A stretch of DNA of 64,000 nt from NCBI GenBank assembly GCA_001600415.1, contig BCJX01000001.1, forward strand, positions 3,606,410 through 3,670,409, written 5' to 3'. Shown here one piece after another: positions 19,501 to 49,658 of the stretch. The stretch is from Pascua guehoae (lineage: Eukaryota > Basidiomycota > Tremellomycetes > Trichosporonales > Trichosporonaceae). The position numbers were made by a program, and so were the translations under genes. The notes below the pieces were generated by a model. The model did no database searches and had not been told where the DNA came from. It was given only the letters and a program-made list of their open reading frames with translations. Numbering within the stretch: position 1 is the stretch's first letter; every line of letters starts with the position of its first letter.

Positions 19501-22339
19501 CTCGCGTGTCGTTGGTCAGGGTCACCGTCCACAGCGTTCAGTCGATGGCGGGCCAACGTCGCGTCTGACGCCCTCACGGCAGGGCCACTCCCACCAGCGA
19601 TCGATGGATGGGAGCGTTGACAGTCTCGCTCAAGGGCGCAGGCTGCAGTCACGTCCTCAACCACAGCGGTCGGTCGACAGCTTCCATTCCGCCCACAAGC
19701 ACGCGTTTGTCACGAGCACCGGCTCGCTGACGTCGTCGACCGGCCACGGCTCGCCATTTGCCACGACCTCGCCTCCATCGCAGGGCTCGCACCACGGGCA
19801 CGGCTCACAGTCGTCACTGTCCAAGATCCGTTTCGCGTTCCGATCACCGTTTGGGTCGAGCAGCAATACTAATGTCAATGGGGACGCGGTGGTATCACAG
19901 TCCATGAGTACATCGCCTCCTCCCCCACACTCGCCACCAAGCCAGCGCCTACGCAAGGCGTCCCTGTCACGCGCGTTCCGGCTCAAGCGCAACTCGACGC
20001 CGCCCAGCTCCCCCGGACGCGTCCACGGGTCTTCGAGCTCGCACTCGCACGGGCACGGGGGGTACACGGACATGAACGAAGGGTACATGTCGGAGAAGGA
20101 AGAGTCCCTCGCTGGTCTGGGTCTTGGCACGGTTGGCGGCTTCCGGTCCAACACGTACCGCACGCCTTCCGGAGGCATCGGGTACACGCCGCCCGCCCCA
20201 CGCGAGCGGGACGCCGCGGCCTCCACTCTCGATGCCGAGGCAGCGCTCTACAAGGCGCGGCAAAAGAGCTTAGCCGAACAGAACGAAGCGCACGAGCGCT
20301 GGCGTCGTCTTGAGGGCGAGCGTGCCGCCCGCCGCGCGCGCGTCCCTAGCAACCCCCGCGTTGCCGACTCGCGCGTCACGTCCATGGCGAGCTCGGGGTT
20401 TAGTGACGAGGAATACTCGCAATTTTCACACATTACCCACACGACCGACCAGGCAAGCGACGAGGTGCCCCAGAGCCTCTCGCTTGCCGTCGTGCGGACT
20501 GCGGGCGACTCGCCTGGACCATCGCCTGTAGACCAGCTCAATGCCGCCGCGACGGCCGCGCGCCGGCACCGCCTGCGTGCGCGCGAACCGCAGCCGAGCT
20601 CGGATGGGCACGTCGACGACGAGCACGAGCTCCTTGACGAGCAGCTCGAGTATGACTATGTCTCAGACGAGGTGGACCGCCCCGAGAATGGCGTTCTGCG
20701 CGGGCCATACGCGACTCTCGCGTACGCCGAACCGTATCCGGACCAGAATGGCCGGCGCGAGACGGCCTATGAGGATGCCGAGACGGGCGAGGACGAGGAA
20801 GCCGACGATACCCTGGGTGCTGATGACGTCGATGCGCCGCAGGGTGCCCACGTCAACGCCAAAGCCGACGTTGCCAACCACGTTGATACGAAACGCAGTG
20901 CAGAGTCGGACCGCGTCGAGGTGGCGCGTGTCGCGGCCAGGAATGAAGACGAGGACCTCGTCGAGGCGGAGGATGAGGCACCCGAGTACGACGAGGGCGA
21001 AGAGAAGGTGCCGGAGTACGACGAGGCCGAGGGGCTCATGGTCGCCGAGGCCGAGGCCCGCCTTCGTGACGAGGAGCGCCGTGCAAAGGACTCTGTGCGC
21101 AGGGCACAGCAGGAGGACGAGACCCAGCGTGCCAAACAGGACGACGAGGAACGCCGCGCAAAGGACTCGGTGCGGCGTGCCCAGCAAGAGGACGAGGAAC
21201 GTCGCGCGAGGGAAAGGGAGGAGGAAGAACGACGCGCAAAGGAGGAGGATGAACGCCGCGCAAAGGAGGAGGATGAACGCCGCGCAAAGGAGGAGGAGCG
21301 TCGTGCAAGGGAGGACGAGGAGCGACGCGCAAGGGAGGAAGAGGAGCGACGCGTGAGGGAGGCCGAGGAGAAGCAGCGAGAGGCAGAAGAGAGGGAAAAG
21401 CGCGCCGCTGCCGAGCGCCGCGAGGCCGAACGGCGCGCGCGTGAAGAGGTAGAACGCACGCGCAGGAGGGAAGAAGAACGAATCCGGGCTGCGGAACGCG
21501 CAAAGGCCGAACGTATCGCGGCGGAAAAGGCGCGCGAGGAGATTCGGCTCCAGCTGCGCAAGGGCAAGAAGGATGGCGGCGTCATGTTGCGCGGGGTGAG
21601 TAGATTGTGAAGGTTGAGCCGGACGAGTCTGCGACGAGAGGCGAGGCGAGGCGAGGCGAGACCCGGGCTACCGAGCACGCCGTGTAGACGGAGCGCAACA
21701 CTGCATGTTCTGAGTCGCGTGCACCCATGTGGTGACGAGTGCAGAGGGCAGTCCCAGTGAAGAGCTGAACATGCCCTCTCTTCACCATCCGATCTTTGCC
21801 ACCATCTCACCAACTCGCCCTCCCCTTTCTCCTACTTGCTCCTTCTACCCGTCCAAACCCACTCTTCGCGTGCTCAAGCTAACACACAGTGGGTCACGGT
21901 CCAAACGACCAAATCCCTCGCGTGGCGTCGCCGCTACTTCCACCTGCTCGGCCGCGAGCTGCGCATGTTCAAGGGCGATGCGTCCGCCGACACGGATCCC
22001 GTCGACACGGCGCCCCTCGATGGCGCGCGCATTAGCCACGATTACGAAGACAGCCAGGTCCGCGGGAGCTGGAAGCTGCGGGATGGCAAGGGAGAGGTGA
22101 GTGCGAGACGAGACGCGTAGCGCCGAGTGGAGCCGAGAGGGGGTGGGGGCCTGGTTAGAGCCATCCGCGTCGTAGATACTCCTGGGCCCTGTTCCCCATC
22201 CGTGACCGTACCCACCACAGTGCCGCTCTCCACACACAACCACACCCATACTAACGCGCAGGAATTCCTCATGTTTGCCGACTCGACAGAGGACAAGGAC
22301 ACGATCCTCGAAGGTCTCTCAGTCGCTATTGGGACCTAG
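13587..22339 (+). CDS. Giant ADF-H + PH domain cytoskeletal protein
   Basis: The protein is 2288 aa from six exons (13587-13663, 14236-14418, 15177-15234, 15332-21595, 21890-22096, 22262-22339). Residues about 1-133, spread over the first four exons, form an ADF-homology domain of coactosin/drebrin type (motifs CWLVARYAEPG, VLLRIADGVRSG, AKAIVHSRAFAALFPDY), expected to bind actin. Residues about 135-2000 are disordered, rich in Pro, Ser and Thr, with LSP and PSP clusters and a tandem RPS-D-S repeat block (about 1364-1558). A Lys/Arg/Glu helix follows (about 2009-2188), predicted to be a coiled coil or single alpha helix. The last two exons encode a C-terminal PH domain (WRRRYFHLLGRELRMFKG, about 2195-2288) for membrane lipids. 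Inference: it links cortical actin to membrane. The second and third introns before exon 4 are long (573 and 758 nt). No fungal gene name is known to me for this order. Confidence 0.9.
19105..19690 (+). repeat. About ten protein-level repeats with RPS/V-DS core
   Basis: Units of about 18-22 codons share HPRPSVDSYSRRTPSS or variants (QRSVDS, RPSMESFAT). They lie inside exon 4 of the ADF-H/PH gene. Codons vary between units, so the amino-acid pattern, including a basic residue two or three positions before Ser, appears to be kept. Confidence 0.85.
21060..21560 (+). repeat. ERRAKEED tandem repeats in a charged helix
   Basis: Seven- to fourteen-residue units such as DERRAKEE repeat almost without break, with near-identical DNA at about 21230-21300. 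They form the long charged helix before the PH domain. Confidence 0.85.
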
Positions 22340-39199: not shown

Positions 39200-40031
39200 G
39201 GGGGTGATGTGTGGAGCTGGCAGGGCTGAGGGGGTACGGCGCGACACGGAGCGGACCAGAGTGGGGCTGGAGAAAGTTATAACTGTGATTGCAGACGATG
39301 TAAAGCTCGAGTTGTTTCCGAAACGATCCCCAATGTCCAGTCCAATCCGCAATAACCTCCCACAAAATGCCTCCTCTATGAGAGGGCAGAGTGGCGGGTG
39401 GGGCCACATCACCGTCGAGCCCACACGAGTTCACCTCGCATGCAACACGAGTTGTATGCTGGGAGAGAGGGTCGTTCCGTCAGTTGTTACTTGCGTGCTG
39501 CCATAACAGAGCTTCCGTCCCCGGCCCAGTGGAGCACAACCCTGTTCCCGATAGGGTGTATTCTCAATGATCACAACAAGGTTGAAACTTCAACTCTGCG
39601 TTTGGGCCGCGGTATGTCAGCTTGGGGATGTCGCGTGACGCGTCACACTGTTGCCTCGTCCAGCGGCATTCACCCTTATCAGCTTCACGCGTGCACTTGC
39701 ACATGCACCCTGCGTTCGCCTTCGCTCATCCAATACTTGGGGTTGTAGTAGTAGTACTAGTGGAGTAGAGTGCGTTTGATGATTGGTAAAACGGTAATGA
39801 ATAGTGGTTTTGTCTTGCACCGTACCGGCGCGGGTGATGAGGTCTATGTCTTGAGAGCTCACCAGGCGCGTTAACAGTGACAAATCTTGCCTCACAGACT
39901 GACCCAGCTCCCTGACGGAGATTCTACTTCGGACGCGATACATCTGCCTCTTAACATACAATAGTAGCCAGTCGGTGCTCTACATCTTGGAATACTATAT
40001 GGCTCGCCGTCGTCAACCAACGGCTGCTGGC
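39200..40031. other. Convergent gap, possibly with extra exon of the secreted protein
   Basis: The left 300 bases contain the open frame that may be a second exon of the secreted-protein gene (39298-39506). The rest shows nothing recognisable. Confidence 0.45.
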
Positions 40032-40856
40032 CTACTCCCTCGCCACCTGGCCCGCTTCGGCGCGCTCGTGCTCTACACTGGTCAGTGTCTCGTGTCTCAC
40101 AACTGTCATATGGCTTACGTTGAGCCTCGTGAAGAGCGGCACGGAATGTGTTGGTCAGGTCGGCATCGCAACCTTTGCCAATGCCGTGCGTGTCGCACAT
40201 TTTGCACAGTGCCCATTGGTATGCGGGCGGGATGACACTCCAGCTCGCGATGCCGAAATCAGATGGGCCCATGGTGTAGCGGTGTGCTTTCCACATAAAC
40301 CAGTGGGGGATGCCGTTTGCATACCGATTGGCGAGCACAATAGCTTGGTTGCACAAGTGGCTGTCATCTGCGATCGCGCCCGAAGTGAAAGCGAACGTGG
40401 GGGTCGCAAAGCCTTGGTGCATGTTGAGGGACACGTCCAACAGCAACGCCTGCTTTGCCGCCTGACAGTCGTATTTGAGCAAAAAATTGAGGAGCTGGAC
40501 GTGGTTTCGAAGAAGAGTGTTGGGGCATTCATGCGACAGCTCAAAACTGAGTGCTTTGATACCGTCGACGATGAGGTCAAGGAAGCCGTAGAGCACGTTA
40601 CTGCACTCGAAGTCGCTTGTGAAACGGACGCATTTCTCGTTATCACCCCCGACGGCGATCATGTCGCGAAACACAGTACTGCAAGAGGTAAGTCGAAATG
40701 TAAGGTACAGCTACCCATGACTCACCTGCTGCTCTGGAGGTGGTACGTTGCGACGCGGAACCGGACATTGTCGGATGAGATGAGCTCAAAGTCGCCCTCG
40801 GTCCAATCGGGCGCGTCGGTGATAGCGGGCGGTTCGTCATGCGGTAGTGCTTGCAT
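40032..40856 (-). CDS. BTB/POZ domain protein
   Basis: The protein is 243 aa from three exons (40856-40726, 40678-40119, 40072-40032). The BTB core reads GDFELISSDNVRFRVATYHL, then STVFRDMIAVGGD across the first junction, FTSDFECSNVLYGFLDLI and NFLLKYDCQAAKQALLLD. BTB domains dimerise and often bridge substrates to Cul3 ubiquitin ligases or act in transcription. No Kelch, MATH or zinc-finger partner domain is present, so its partner is unknown. The C-terminal half (NQAIVLANRYANGIPHW, ALCKMCDTHGIGKGCDADLT) looks like the BACK-less form I associate with Tremellomycete BTB families. The last exon is short (41 nt) and ends in a charged tail. Confidence 0.88.
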
Positions 40857-41488
40857 GGTAGATGGTGGACGGGTCCGGGACGACTTGGAGAGAGAGGTAA
40901 CGGCGTGGGCTGGGGATGGTTGACGGGAGTGGTGTTGCGCGGATCGCAAGGGACAGTAGGAGGGGTGAGAAATCAGAGAGTGGATAAAAGAACGGTTGGG
41001 AGGAAGGTGAGAAGTGTATACGTGTAGAGGAAGGAGCAAGCGAAGGAAGCAAGGCAGAGGAGGGGTGCAGGTCAACAAAGAGCGGCGAGCAAGGCATGGC
41101 GGCCATGCGTGTGCACGGTAGTGTTGGTTGGCCCGAGCTCGAACGAGCTGTGCGCTCACTCGCTTCGCTCGCATAGGCCATCTCGGTAGGCTGTATTCAA
41201 CATGCATCGCTCTATCACCCCATTCCTCGCTCGACACGTAGTGGTAATGTGATGATTCTGGCGCCAAGCGTCAGCCCACCTGTTATGTGGTGTGTTTGTG
41301 ACATGTCCAGAGCGGCTCAACGCCGGACAGTGAGAATGTCACACCTTGAGTACATACACTATGCGGTGATATGCGCACTTCGTGCTGGTTCCTGTACCTC
41401 AAGAGGGATTTCTGGCATCCCTCTCCTCAAGTCACTCTCCACCTTCCATGGCCCGAGGCTGAACGTTCGGGATGCAAAGGAGAAGAGA
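40857..41488. other. Leader of BTB gene and tRNA-relic flank
   Basis: The sequence just upstream of the BTB start is purine-rich on the plus strand, that is pyrimidine-rich on the coding strand, as in other leaders here. No gene was seen. Confidence 0.5.
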
Positions 41489-44087: not shown

Positions 44088-45010
44088 CTGCGCTTTTAAC
44101 CCATTTCTTCTGATCGTCTTCGCGTAGCCTCCCCAGTAATTCTAAACACTACATGCCTGCATGCATGCGCACCAGCTTGGCGACACCCGATATGGACCAC
44201 TGATGGGCACATCATTTTCGCTCATGCACCAAGTGGGATCACTCGGATCCAGGCACAATCACGTCTTCCGCTAGTGTCGGTCCACGCGGTATGGTTCAAA
44301 CTGGGCAGTTGCATCGTTGGGCTCACCATCAGTCGGCATGCACGGGATCATGGCCAGGAGACAAGACTACCAAGCCAAGAGGATCAAAAAATGGCACAGT
44401 GGAGGGGGAGCACATGGGTGCAATGTCTTGGCAGCATCCATAGCGTCAGTTGGGCCGGAAATGGCGCGCGTTAGGCTTGGTTGTTATCTTTTAGTCAACA
44501 CCCGGCGCGTAAGGAATGTCCAACGCTCACGCGCTCTCCGACGGGTGGAGGCCGAGACGATCCGAGGCGGCGGCATGCAAGGCCCTTTCTGCCAGCATGC
44601 GACCAATGAGGGTTCAGTCAAGTCAAGTCGGCGGCTCAACTGGAGAGAGGCTTGTGATTGCCTTGTGAGGCAAGCTGCACGCCGGTGGAGTTGTTGACAC
44701 ATTTGCCTGTGCGACGAGTTTGCTGCTTGCACTCGGTATCTGCTTCGGCGAGCAATTCATTCCGCGACTCCCGCATAGGTGACGCGACGTGTGCACCAAG
44801 CGCGAGGAAGCGGAAATGGCCGACAAAGAAATGCCAAGAGGACATATTCTGGCGTGATATGAGGGACGATACTGTTCCGAGAATCATCCGTGTGCATGCT
44901 ACCCGCATCATGCTGCCTTCGACACTGTGCATATAGTCTACAGGAGGTGGGGGATCGCCGACCTTGACACAGGACAGGACATGGAGCGCGGCCAGCAGTT
45001 GCAGGACGCC
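44088..45010. other. Promoter of the peptide transporter and 3' flank of the acidic gene
   Basis: No gene was seen. The right end (44923-44981) is repeated at 45848-45903 and marks the left edge of the tandem duplication. Confidence 0.55.
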
Positions 45011-45035
45011 CTACGCCTCCGACTGTGCGTCCTCA

Positions 45036-45067
<32 letters not shown>

Positions 45068-45456
45068 CTCATCATCAACGTCGTCGTCAATGACTTGAGC
45101 ACGGCGCATAATCTGCCGAGTCAGAAAGCAGCCGACCTCGTCCTGCTCACCTCCATCAACCTGGTCACCGCCTCGAAAGCCCTTTCCCACGTCTCGCGCA
45201 TGTCGCGGCGTTCGTTGTACTCTTCTTCGTCGTCGTATTCGTCTTCGGGCTCGGCGGGCTTGGACTTGAGCACCCACGCATATATGTCAAGGATGCTCTG
45301 GCGTCAGTGCTGGGCAGCTTTGTCCTCCGATTCTTTCGTTACTGGGGTGCTTACGTTGACCATCTTCAGGTACACGCTACGCGTCACGATCATGGACGGC
45401 TCGTCGATGGCGTCGGGGGTCACGGGACACGGAGCGTGGGTACACTTGAGGCACAT
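45011..45456 (-). CDS. Small acidic CxxC protein, tandem copy B
   Basis: The protein is 116 aa from three exons (45456-45355, 45297-45151, 45112-45011), both introns phase 0. It starts MCLKCTHAPCPVTPDAIDEP, then MIVTRSVYLKMVN, SILDIYAWVLKSKPAEP, DEYDDEEEYNERRD and IMRRAQVIDDDVDDED, ending in a run of Asp. The N-terminal CxxC plus a nearby Cys could bind zinc, but no known zinc fold is recognised. There is no signal peptide or membrane segment. It is paralogous to the gene at 45934-46584, with the same first exon length (34 codons) and homologous introns, but it lacks that gene's middle exon. Family and function are unknown; a nuclear or histone-binding role is a guess from the acidic tail only. 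Confidence 0.8.
45038..45067. repeat. GTC (coding strand GAC) trinucleotide run
   Basis: Ten tandem GTC triplets on the plus strand encode a pure Asp run at the C-terminus of the 116-aa protein. This is a likely site of length variation. Confidence 0.9.
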
Positions 45457-45847
45457 TGTGTTTTCTTATCGTCAGTCCGCTTGTGTAGCGGAGAGCGCAA
45501 TCCAAGTAACTCACAAGCGATGATGGATGGGGCGGGTGGCTTGACGTGGGCGTTTGGTTGAGAGTTGTGATGGTGGTGGCTGGTATCTCTGATGGGAGAG
45601 GATTGGTACGAGATCAGGTGAGAGGAAAGAAGGAGCGTTGGGAGAAGAGGAAAAGACAAGGTATTGAGAGGAAACGAGAGAGGAAGGGGGGAAGGAAGGA
45701 ATGGGGGAAGGAAGGAAGGGGATGAATGGGAGAAGGAGGGAAGGGGAGGAAGACTGGGCGAGCGGGAGACCACAGGTCGATGGGGGATAAGGTATGGTCT
45801 GAGAGAAGACGAAAGATGGATGATGGCACTGATGTTGTTTCTCGTCA

Positions 45848-46850
45848 GACTGTGCATATAGACTACAGAAAGTTGGGATCGCGACCTTCACACAGGACAG
45901 GGCGTGGGGGAGGGCATACCGTCACAGGGAGCTTTACACCTCCAACTCTGCTTCCTCGTCCTCGTCATCGTAATCATCCTCGTCATCGTAACCATCCTCG
46001 TCATCGTCATCGTCATCACCCTCGACCACGCAACGGTCCAGGATCTGAGCCGAGTCAGAAGGGGCGGCCACGTCCTGCTCACCTCCTTGATCTTCTCCAT
46101 AGCCTTAAAAACGGCAATGAACTCGGCGCACTCCTTGGAACGTTCATGGCCAGGGGACTCTTCCTCGTCCTCGTATTCGTCTTCGGTGGGCTCCTCAGGG
46201 TGATCCTCGTCCTCGCTCTCATCATCGTCCTCGACCTTGGCACGGCGCATGATCTGAACCGAGTTAGATAGCAGCCACCAAGTCCTACTCACCTCCATCA
46301 CTTGGTTCATGCCCTCAAGAGTGGCCTTCCACTGCTCGTACTTGCTGCGGCGTTTGTTGAACTCTTCTTCATCGTCGTATTCGTCTTCGTCGGGCTCCTC
46401 GACGCGATGGTTGATCACGCAGTCGTAGATGACAAGCAGAGACTGGCGTGAGTGCTCGCACCCGCGGTTGCTGGGTGCGTACGTCGATCAGCGTCAGGTA
46501 GACCCTCCTGGTCACGAACATGGACGGTTGGTCAATGTCGTCCGTGGTCACACAGCACCGGGCGTCGAAACACTTGAGGCACATTGCGCTTCTTGCGGTT
46601 TGTAAGCCCCATTTTGAGCACTGACAATTCTCCAAGCTACTCAAAAGCAACGGCGAATGGGGTCCGGTGGCCCAACGATGGAGTTTGGTCAAGAATGGCG
46701 ATGGTCGTTACTGATAGTTGACGGGTGAGTGGCGAGAGGATCGGTGGGAGAAGATTGAGCGGGTGTAAGACAGGTGGGGTGAGAGAAGACAGAAGATGGA
46801 GATGGATCCTGGAACAGATGACATGGGATCCCGTCAGCGAAGACGAACAT
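45848..46850. repeat. Tandem duplication unit 2 (copy A)
   Basis: This unit starts with ACTGTGCATATAGACTACAG, matching the start of unit 1, and contains the 177-aa acidic gene. The promoter side also matches (GAGAGAAGACAGAAGATGGA near 46780 against GAGAGAAGACGAAAGATGGA near 45800). The right edge is approximate. Confidence 0.75.
45934..46584 (-). CDS. Small acidic CxxC protein, tandem copy A with repeated exon
   Basis: The protein is 177 aa from four exons (46584-46483, 46442-46293, 46253-46083, 46044-45934), all introns phase 0 and 38-40 nt. It starts MCLKCFDARCCVTTDDIDQP, MFVTRRVYLTLID. Exon 2 encodes EEPDEDEYDDEEEFNKRRSK and ends MNQVME. Exon 3 encodes IMRRAKVEDDDESEDED, EEPTEDEYEDEEE and ends MEKIKE. 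Exon 4 encodes ILDRCVVEGDDDDDDED and an acidic end. Exons 2 and 3 share the EEP..DEY.DEEE core and a closing amphipathic segment. Introns 2 and 3 are near copies of each other, so an exon-plus-intron unit was duplicated inside the gene. No known domain or targeting signal was seen; the function is unknown. Confidence 0.82.
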
Positions 46851-46977: not shown

Positions 46978-49080
46978 CTAACCCCCCCATGGGCCCGGCG
47001 CACCAAACCTCGACCCCATCCCCCTGCCTGCAAAGCCGATTCGGAAGGGGAACCCGCCACGGAGGGGCCCACCGCGCGTGGGCAGGCCGCGAAGGACGGG
47101 GACAAACTCGGTGTTATCGTCGTCCTTGGGTGGAGCGACTGGGGCCTTTTGCTTTGGCGGTTCGGGCTTGCCGTGGCCAAGGACGAGGGCGCCCGTGTGC
47201 ATGCCTGCCGCGGTGATGGCAAAGACAAAGGCGTTGCGCCCGCCCTGCTGCGGGAACGGGACGCGCGTGGGGGCGTCGACGTGCTCGTATGAGCGGTACC
47301 GCGCGCCAGCAGAGGGGGGAGTCGCGAGGCCAAGCTGGCCGCAAGCGTTCTCGCCCCAGGTGAACATCTCGCCCTTGGCTGTCAGTGCCGCCATGTGCCA
47401 GTCGCCAGCGACGACTTGGACGACGGGCTGGCCTTCGAGTCCAGGGAGGGGCTGGGGGCGGAGACTGGGCCCGTCCCCGGGCCGGATGTGGTCGGCGCGC
47501 GCAAAGAGGACCGACGTCGATGCCGAGAGCTCTGCGGGCGTCGAGTAGGTGGTGAGCGTCGCGTATTGCGCGGTAATGTGCGTAATGGACGGAGAGGAAA
47601 AGTGGGCCATCTGAGAGAAAAATGGTCAGCCTGGGATGTTGCAGAGGGCAAGTTTCGGCATAGCTCACGTATTCCCACTGGTTGAGACGGCCCATGTCCA
47701 TCGCCCACACCTCGCCGTTACCCCTGAGCGCGACGATATAGTCCTGGCCACATGCGATGGTGACGATTCGTTCCTTTTCTTCCCGCTGTGAATCGGTCCA
47801 GCCGTGAGCAGCCTTCTCAAACTGCTTCTCGAGGGCCGCGAGCTCGCCGTCCGGATCGTCTTCGGGCGTTGGAGAAGGACGGTCCGGGAGTGGTGGAAGA
47901 GTGTGGACGACGTCGGCTCCTACTGTACCCCACTTGAGCTTGGGGATGCCCTCGTCGTCGTCACCGTCGGTCCACGTGGTATTTAGCTCGTCCTCTGGTG
48001 TACACGCTTCCTTGTACTCGGCACTGAGCGGGAACCACAGGTATACGGTCCCCTCAGCAGTAAGGGCCGCTGTCAGCTGCCAGCCGGCGGCGATCTGTTT
48101 TATGTGCGCCGCTCGGCCCGGTGCGCGGGCACCGCTCGATGACGGTGCGGTGAGTTCTGGAGCCGTATGGCGGTACGCCTGGGGTGTGAGCGCAAGCGGG
48201 GAGGATCACCATTTCCTTGTCGGCCCAACTCACGCGACCATATGAGCGCATCTCCCACACCAGGTTATCGTCGTCGAGTACGACCAGATGCTGCCGACCA
48301 GATGCAATCGCCGTGGCGCTGCATGGGAGCGGGAGTGGCGTCGGCTCCTCGACGGTAAAGGACGTGTTATCCCAGCTGGCTCCCCACCCGTGTCCCCTTC
48401 CATCGAGCTTACCTACTTTGTCAGCCACATGACAAGGCACACCGAGAGCAACTGGATGAAAACATACCCCACACCCAGACGGCGCCGCGCGCATCGCGCG
48501 CCGCAAAGCTCCACCCGCCGGCGACGAGCTCAACAATTCCTGTCGCCTCGTCGTCGACACCGGTGTCGTGCTCGCGCTGCTGTGCGTCGCGGTCCGCCAG
48601 CGCGCGGCCGCGGGACGGCGGCTCGAAGTTGAACGTCGCGTCCATGGGTTTCGTGACCCATGACGAGTGCATGTACGCCGCATCGTGGACGGGGCCGAGA
48701 CGGTGCCCGCTCTTGTCGCCCCACAAGAACGTCCGTGGGCGCCGGAGACCAATGTAGACGCGCTTGTACCACCCGTCGTCGCGGGGCGCGAGGGAGAGCG
48801 ACGAGGCGCGGTACGAGAAATCCATGGCAGTGAGGGTACGCCATAGCGAGGGGTCGTTCTGTGCCCAGTCAGTGGGGCGGGTAGATGCAGGTGGATGCAG
48901 GTAACTCACGACAAGTGCGTTCAGATCCTTGCTCACGACAGAGAGGTTGAGAAGGTCGGCGAGGGGCAGACATGGCAGGAGGTACTCGAGAATGACCTCG
49001 GGAGGGAGCGATAGCAGCGACGCGGGCGGCTCAGAGCTGTCACGAGCGGTATCGCCTGGTGTGGGGGATGTCGTGCTCAT
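46978..49080 (-). CDS. F-box/RCC1-like SCF adaptor (SAF1/Pof9-like), copy 2
   Basis: The protein is about 620 aa from five exons on the minus strand; the first two are about 49080-48910 and 48858-48468. The N-terminus carries an F-box (SLPPEVILEYLLPCLPLADL, then NLSVVSKDLNAL), an NDPSLWRTLTAMDF segment and YKRVYIGLRRPRTFLWGDKS, the same layout as the gene at 28336. RCC1-like blades follow: VELVAGGWSFAARDARGAVW, ASGRQHLVVLDDDNLVWEMR, IACGQDYIVALRGNGEVWAM and VAGDWHMAALTAKGEMFTWG with NACGQLGLA. The C-terminus is Gly/Arg-rich (FRIGFAGRGMGSRFGAPGPW). The expected role is substrate recognition in an SCF ubiquitin ligase, as for yeast Saf1. Sequence identity to copy 1 is low apart from the layout, so the duplication is old. 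Confidence 0.88.
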
Positions 49081-49658
49081 GGTGAGTGATGGAGCAAGAC
49101 GACAGCGGTGGGCACGCTGAAACTAGAGTGTGTCAGGAGTAGGTGCTCCAGAGTACTCGGTGTGGCTTGAGACTGGGCGGTATATGGCGGATGTTGCAGT
49201 GTCAACCGACTGATCCGACACGACACGACGCGAATCGCCACCCAGCAAGGTCAACGACGTCATCGCTCATCGTAAGCCACATGCAACCAAAAAAGGTCCC
49301 GCGCGTCTGATAAATGCGGAAGCAAAACTTCTTTCGGCGACCGTTCTCCTTGTGGTTGTTTGTGTTGTCGTACTGCTGAGTTTAGTTGAGGCCAAGTGGC
49401 ATGAGGACGGGTTCGAGAGCACATCATTCCCATACCAAACAGAAGTGGATAGTTTGGTAGCACTACTGCAGTTAGCAGACAGACATCCTCCGGCCAGTGT
49501 CGTTGTCTTACGCCACCAGCCTGGGACGCAATGTCTTCGCCAACGTCGTCTGCGACAGCTGTATTGGGTCGACCCCGTCCCGAGCGAGCTGGACTTGAAG
49601 GACTGATTGTGTCTATAGATGCATATGTGCCAGAAGTCCAGTCACCTAATCGAAACCC
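49081..49658. other. Gap between F-box copy 2 and NSA1
   Basis: This is the promoter and leader of the F-box gene on the left and the NSA1 3' end on the right. No gene was seen. Confidence 0.5.

What the first reader, a model, noticed from the sequence alone, without database searches (positions are those of the whole stretch)
44923..46850. Tandem pair of undescribed acidic CxxC genes from a 0.9 kb duplication
Two adjacent minus-strand genes share a first exon of exactly 34 codons starting MCLKC, then VTRxVYL, an EP..DEY.DEEE core, an IMRRA segment and an Asp/Glu-rich end. The flanks are duplicated as well: ACTGTGCATATAG plus ACACAGGACAG on the 3' side, and GAGAGAAGAC..AAGATGGA on the 5' side. 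I recognise no known domain. A small acidic family with a CxxC start, expanding by tandem copying, is a good candidate for a lineage-specific gene family.
Basis: seen in the sequence. Interest (0 to 1): 0.75.

Follow-up and report, generated by a model that had tools for sequence, protein, structure and literature searches.

The report
Tandem pair of acidic orphan genes
Two neighbouring small genes in a soil yeast are old copies of each other and distant cousins of one longer cysteine-rich gene elsewhere in its genome; they look like an ordinary, lineage-restricted gene family whose job is still unknown.

Summary
Two minus-strand genes, A (116 aa) and B (177 aa), share exon structure, leader and 3' end, and differ less at amino-acid-changing than at silent sites (dN/dS 0.41). 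No convincing relative was found among 5.77 billion proteins or in Pfam, although a neighbouring gene finds Trichosporonales relatives at about 60% identity. Assembly statistics point to Pascua guehoae JCM 10690, where 3,277 of 10,065 proteins were counted as unique, so orphans are common there. B holds an internal duplication (about 210 nt) of core, intron and next-exon start. A third, dispersed member, C, lies on contig C10: same central exon between introns at the same places, but with two C-x2-C-x6-C motifs upstream and a basic tail where A and B have polyacidic tails. The shared exon is predicted as a helical hairpin (pLDDT 90). Best reading: a small lineage-restricted family built on a hairpin exon, with A and B as short acid-tailed forms. 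That they bind or compete with C is inference.

The parts
45011..45456 (-). Gene A, 116 aa, exons 45355-45456, 45151-45297, 45011-45112 (with stop)
   Evidence: Spliced reading frame, GT..AG introns
45298..45354 (-). Intron 1 of A, 57 nt, phase 0
45113..45150 (-). Intron 2 of A, 38 nt, phase 0
   Evidence: 84% identical to intron 2 of B and 89% to intron 3 of B
45934..46584 (-). Gene B, 177 aa, exons 46483-46584, 46293-46442, 46083-46253, 45934-46044 (with stop)
   Evidence: Spliced reading frame, GT..AG introns
46443..46482 (-). Intron 1 of B, 40 nt
46254..46292 (-). Intron 2 of B, 39 nt, open in frame if retained (13 extra residues)
46045..46082 (-). Intron 3 of B, 38 nt
45990..46400 (-). 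Internal tandem duplication in B: acidic core, helix, intron and start of next exon, period about 210 nt
   Evidence: Protein score 99 vs shuffle mean 32, 0 of 1000; DNA score 147 vs 28, 0 of 200 codon shuffles
44924..44952 (-). Shared 3' flank, copy A
   Evidence: 86% identical to 45849-45877
45849..45877 (-). Shared 3' flank, copy B
45795..45820 (-). Shared 5' flank, copy A
   Evidence: 85% identical to 46775-46800
46775..46800 (-). Shared 5' flank, copy B
45151..45297 (-). Exon 2 of A: predicted helix 2-11, acidic loop, helix 24-48 (hairpin); the exon shared with dispersed gene C
   Evidence: pLDDT 89.8 from a 3-row alignment; vs C exon 4 score 93, shuffle mean 24.9, z 12.0

Best explanation
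A and B are a tandem pair from a small, lineage-restricted gene family of Pascua guehoae whose shared module is one exon, bounded by two phase-0 introns, that codes for a helix - acidic loop - helix hairpin. A third member, C, on contig C10 carries the same exon inside a longer protein (about 326 aa) with two C-x2-C-x6-C motifs before it and a basic, Lys/Arg-rich tail after it. A and B begin at a single shortened C-x2-C-x4-C motif and end in Asp/Glu tracts. Shown: the duplication, the internal repeat in B, homology of the hairpin exon with C, the opposite tail charges. Inferred: the hairpin is a protein-contact surface; A and B are soluble acidic binders that pair through it with each other or with C, and their tails hold basic partners (C's tail, histones or RNA-binding proteins). 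My odds: about 0.8 for what it is and its relation to C, about 0.2 for this mechanism.
For: Duplication of exons, introns and both flanks. dN/dS 0.41 over 94 codons, pn/ps bootstrap interval 0.36-0.81. Internal repeat of B. C found with A residues 1-98 at E 4.4e-5, and A found back with C at E 8.0e-5. A exon 2 vs C exon 4: z 12.0; B exon 2 vs C exon 4: z 5.8; each 0 of 300 shuffles. Exon lengths 147, 150 and 144 nt with the same intron places and phases. Hairpin prediction with mean pLDDT 89.8. Tail charges: A -18 over 33 residues, B -22 over 36, C +16 over 119.
Against: No transcript or protein evidence. Protein B alone did not find C. Exon 1 of A or B is not significantly similar to the Cys exon of C (p 0.10 and 0.26), and A exon 1 scores better against C's tail (0 of 300 shuffles) and against C exons 1-2 (p 0.007), so its kinship with the second Cys motif rests on position alone. 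Shuffles do not keep acidic clustering: A exon 2 vs C exon 3 also gave p 0.010. Differences between A and B are not concentrated at third codon positions (29, 22, 32; p 0.39), and codon usage is explained by GC3 alone. No trace of C's first Cys motif was seen upstream of A or B. The hairpin model rests on three rows, all from this pair, and matches no solved fold (18 matches, best E 4.6).
Confidence: 0.45

Rival explanations
1. Free-standing acidic binders: A and B work alone, as small histone- or RNA-binding-protein sinks through their Asp/Glu tails, without any contact with C.
For: Net charge -27 (A) and -48 (B), polyacidic ends; predicted pI about 4.05.
Against: Acidic tracts here are simple triplet runs and four other places in the genome code for similar tracts in unrelated frames, so such tails arise easily and need not be selected. 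No Pfam histone-chaperone match.
Confidence: 0.25
2. Decaying duplicates: A and B are relaxed, near-neutral copies of a once longer gene, kept by chance.
For: Only about 49% protein identity between copies; no excess of third-position changes; a likely broken relative on contig C17 with a stop inside its Cys motif (E 0.0047) suggests that the family does decay.
Against: Both frames are open across three and four exons with splice sites kept; dN/dS 0.41 with pn/ps interval below 1.
Confidence: 0.2
3. Degenerate Skp1 or BTB proteins serving the neighbouring F-box-like gene.
For: Superficial likeness of the hairpin and acidic loop to the middle of Skp1; B vs the genome's own Skp1 p 0.05.
Against: Five of the six comparisons gave p 0.26 or more; no Skp1_POZ or BTB match in Pfam; kinship with C explains the exon better.
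Confidence: 0.03

Closest known systems
Gene C of the same genome (G000:C10:1083616-1084802, minus strand; locus L020)
   Same: Hairpin exon of 144 nt (A 147, B 150) with the same bounding phase-0 introns; C-L-x-C a comparable distance before it
   Different: Longer (about 326 aa), two C-x2-C-x6-C motifs, extra N-terminal exons, basic tail
Fungal Zn2Cys6 binuclear cluster proteins (PF00172)
   Same: C has two C-x2-C-x6-C half motifs
   Different: In C the halves lie 39 residues apart; canonical spacing, recalled, is about 5-12. Pfam score 9.0 bits, cut-off 21. A and B keep one shortened motif
MicroProteins (small relatives of larger proteins, keeping an interaction domain)
   Same: Short relatives of a longer protein that keep one module
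   Different: No interaction shown; which form is ancestral is not known. The definition is from abstracts in a search listing
Orphan or species-unique proteins of Trichosporonaceae
   Same: No convincing database relative; 3,277 of 10,065 P. guehoae proteins counted as unique
   Different: This one has traceable relatives inside its own genome

Membership tests
Tandem duplicated gene pair | Adjacent, same strand, shared exons, introns and flanks | tested here: met
Protein-coding gene under constraint | Nonsynonymous change below synonymous | tested here: met
   dN/dS 0.41; pn/ps bootstrap interval 0.36-0.81
Protein-coding gene under constraint | Excess of third-position changes; codon usage beyond GC3 | tested here: not met
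   29, 22, 32 changes by position, p 0.39; GC3-matched random codons score as well in 1097 (A) and 1333 (B) of 2000
Family of gene C | Homologous hairpin exon with shared intron places and phase | tested here: met
Family of gene C | Homologous Cys exon | tested here: inconclusive
   p 0.10 (A) and 0.26 (B)
Zn2Cys6 cluster (PF00172) | Two linked C-x2-C-x6-C halves; Pfam match above cut-off | tested here: not met
   No match for A or B; C only 9.0 bits, cut-off 21
Skp1 / BTB | Sequence match to the POZ fold | tested here: not met
MicroProtein | Small relative of a longer protein keeping one domain | tested here: inconclusive
   A and B share one exon with C; polarity unknown
MicroProtein | Binds and modulates the longer relative | not testable with these tools
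   Needs an interaction assay
Lineage-specific family | Absent from sister genera | tested here: inconclusive
   No convincing hit with a control that worked, but the search needs shared 5-residue words, one search scored only the 7987 top candidates, and C was never searched against that database

The most novel reading that the evidence does not exclude
A and B are acid-tailed relatives of a cysteine-cluster nuclear protein: they keep its pairing hairpin, have lost half of its metal site and have the opposite tail charge, and so act as natural competitors that pull C off its nucleic-acid target, a home-grown microProtein system in a yeast, tuned by triplet-repeat length in the acidic tails.
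Probability: 0.1. Interest if true: 0.6.

Novelty: new member of a known kind. Interest (0 to 1): 0.3.

Why it matters
It is a compact case of how a lineage-restricted gene family can grow: one hairpin exon travels with its introns, is doubled inside one gene, doubled again as a gene pair, and sits before a basic tail in one member and polyacidic tails in others. If A and B do compete with C, it would be a testable example of a repressor evolving from gene parts in a non-pathogenic soil yeast. As it stands, it is one orphan pair in a genome where about a third of proteins were counted as unique.

Tried and rejected
Skp1/BTB origin, suggested by eye: tested against the genome's own Skp1 (found through PF03931), a second Skp1_POZ hit and a BTB-like protein of the window. 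Five of six comparisons gave p 0.26 or more, one (B vs Skp1) p 0.05. Dropped.

Other genomic matches: the 5 non-self DNA matches are Asp/Glu-coding or CT-rich simple sequence (two of the five lie at one place on C6). The C9 hit (E 2.36) and the C9 hit (E 0.007) show nothing of the family on reading. The C17 match to C (E 0.0047) has a stop inside the Cys motif; kept only as a possible relic.

Database hits of the profile: 9 proteins at E <= 10, best 0.066; 7 of the 9 were fetched and read and share only acidic runs; 2 were not read. Fold search of the hairpin: 18 matches, none at E <= 0.001. The bacterial promoter/terminator scan does not apply to a fungus and was not used. Codon usage gave no support beyond GC3. 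Paper searches gave context only; two of them returned no papers.

Full report
What is there. On the minus strand two genes follow each other. B (ATG 46584, stop 45934-45936) has four exons and 177 codons; A (ATG 45456, stop 45011-45013) has three exons and 116 codons. Exon 1 is 34 codons in both; the first two introns sit at the same places, all in phase 0. Flanks are shared on both sides. The protein cores align with a score of 272 against a shuffle mean of 30. Identity is 75% in exon 1, 67% in exon 2, 61% in the near 5' flank and 74% in the 3' flank. Nei-Gojobori dS is 0.74 and dN 0.31 over 94 codons; the bootstrap interval of pn/ps is 0.36-0.81. Against this, changes are not concentrated at third positions (29, 22, 32; p 0.39), and codon usage adds nothing beyond GC3. 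I take the pair as likely coding and moderately constrained; transcription is untested.

An inner repeat. B holds a second copy of its acidic core, helix, intron and next-exon start, about 210 nt away (protein score 99 vs 32, 0 of 1000 shuffles). In a three-way DNA alignment A is closest to the first unit of B (76%), then B unit 1 to unit 2 (69%), then A to unit 2 (65%); two-way agreements number 31, 20 and 14. Taken at face value, the inner repeat is older than the gene duplication and A lost a unit; faster change in unit 2 would look the same. The short introns are more alike (79-89%) than the exons (67-75%), which I cannot explain; gene conversion is one possibility.

Which genome. The assembly searched holds 33,646,469 bases in 28 contigs, and contig C6 is 2,162,681 bases long. 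Table 1 of PMC7026411 (section 3, part 1, read) lists Pascua guehoae JCM 10690 with 33,698,914 bases and an N50 of 2,162,681. I infer that this is the source. The paper counts 3,277 of its 10,065 proteins as unique, the highest count in that table; the lineage is thinly sampled, so being an orphan is not rare here.

Relatives. B found none of 1524 candidates at E <= 10; a profile of A and B found 9 weak hits, best E 0.066, and the 7 that I read share only acidic runs. The control, the neighbouring NSA1-like gene, returned 48 proteins, the named top ones being Vanrija albida (62%), V. pseudolonga (61%), Cutaneotrichosporon spelunceum (59%) and Apiotrichum porosum (60%), so sister genera are in the database. 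The method needs shared 5-residue words, and fast-evolving relatives could be missed. Pfam gives nothing near a cut-off.

A third member. Residues 1-98 of A hit contig C10 at E 4.4e-5; the reverse search finds A at E 8.0e-5. The gene model of C has an exon of 144 nt between phase-0 introns that matches exon 2 of A (147 nt) and B (150 nt) end to end: score 93, z 12.0 for A, and 48, z 5.8 for B, each 0 of 300 shuffles. Of the 28 exon pairs tested, five others reached p 0.013 or less (A1 with C1-2, C4 and C5; A2 with C3; B2 with C3), so only the A2-C4 and B2-C4 results, which also have the intron evidence, are used. Exon 1 of A and B does not match C's Cys exon significantly. C has two C-x2-C-x6-C motifs 39 residues apart and a tail of net charge +16; the tails of A and B are -18 and -22. 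Searches with parts of C found no further intact member, only a possible relic on C17 with a stop in its Cys motif (E 0.0047). No remnant of C's first Cys motif was seen upstream of A or B.

What the shared exon looks like. From three window exons AlphaFold2 gives helix 2-11, a loop over the acidic stretch, and helix 24-48, with mean pLDDT 89.8 and pTM 0.67. No solved structure matches at E <= 0.001.

How it most likely works. Inference: the hairpin exon, the only part clearly kept in all three genes, is a contact surface; the tails decide what is bound. C, with Cys motifs and a basic tail, looks like a nuclear nucleic-acid binder; A and B look like acidic counterparts that could pair with it or hold basic proteins. 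None of this is shown.

Place among known things. Tandem duplication, exon duplication and triplet-built acidic tails are ordinary. Neither C nor A/B passes the Zn2Cys6 test, and a Skp1/BTB origin failed. The microProtein idea, known to me here from abstracts in a listing, fits the layout but not yet any test.

Noticed in passing
   Followed up: partly
L030 2767-8872: Large frames about 250 bases from gene C look like a Ty3/gypsy-type retrotransposon (motifs recalled, no family search), so C lies in a mobile-element neighbourhood.
   Followed up: no
L029 about 1501-1665 (G000:C17:587656-587826, plus): Possible relic of a C-like gene with an in-frame stop inside its Cys motif (E 0.0047).
   Followed up: partly
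window 45113-45150, 46254-46292, 46045-46082: The three short introns are 79-89% alike, more than the surrounding exons (67-75%); unexplained, perhaps gene conversion or intron constraint.
   Followed up: partly
window 46254-46292: Intron 2 of B is open in frame, so its retention would add 13 residues; in A the matching intron holds a stop.
   Followed up: no
window 46612 and 45457-45530: B has an out-of-frame upstream ATG (26 codons) just before its start, A has none in 45457-45848; A's leader also shows a possible 5'-UTR intron (GTGAGT...CTGAC...AAG) whose donor is altered in B.
   Followed up: partly
L030 1-1080 and L031 2598-3740: Two related F-box-like reading frames (FPHIxDL..SFAPRASL..LRRT.WE) flank gene C on either side, a separate local family (name recalled).
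   Followed up: no
window 46978-49122: Immediate upstream neighbour looks like an F-box plus RCC1-repeat protein (recognised by eye, not searched).
   Followed up: no
window 39892-41270: BTB-like gene (recognised by eye); compared with A and B and not related.
   Followed up: partly
window 20753-21547: Long ERR-rich, coiled-coil-like repeat frame, seen only as a low-complexity match.
   Followed up: no
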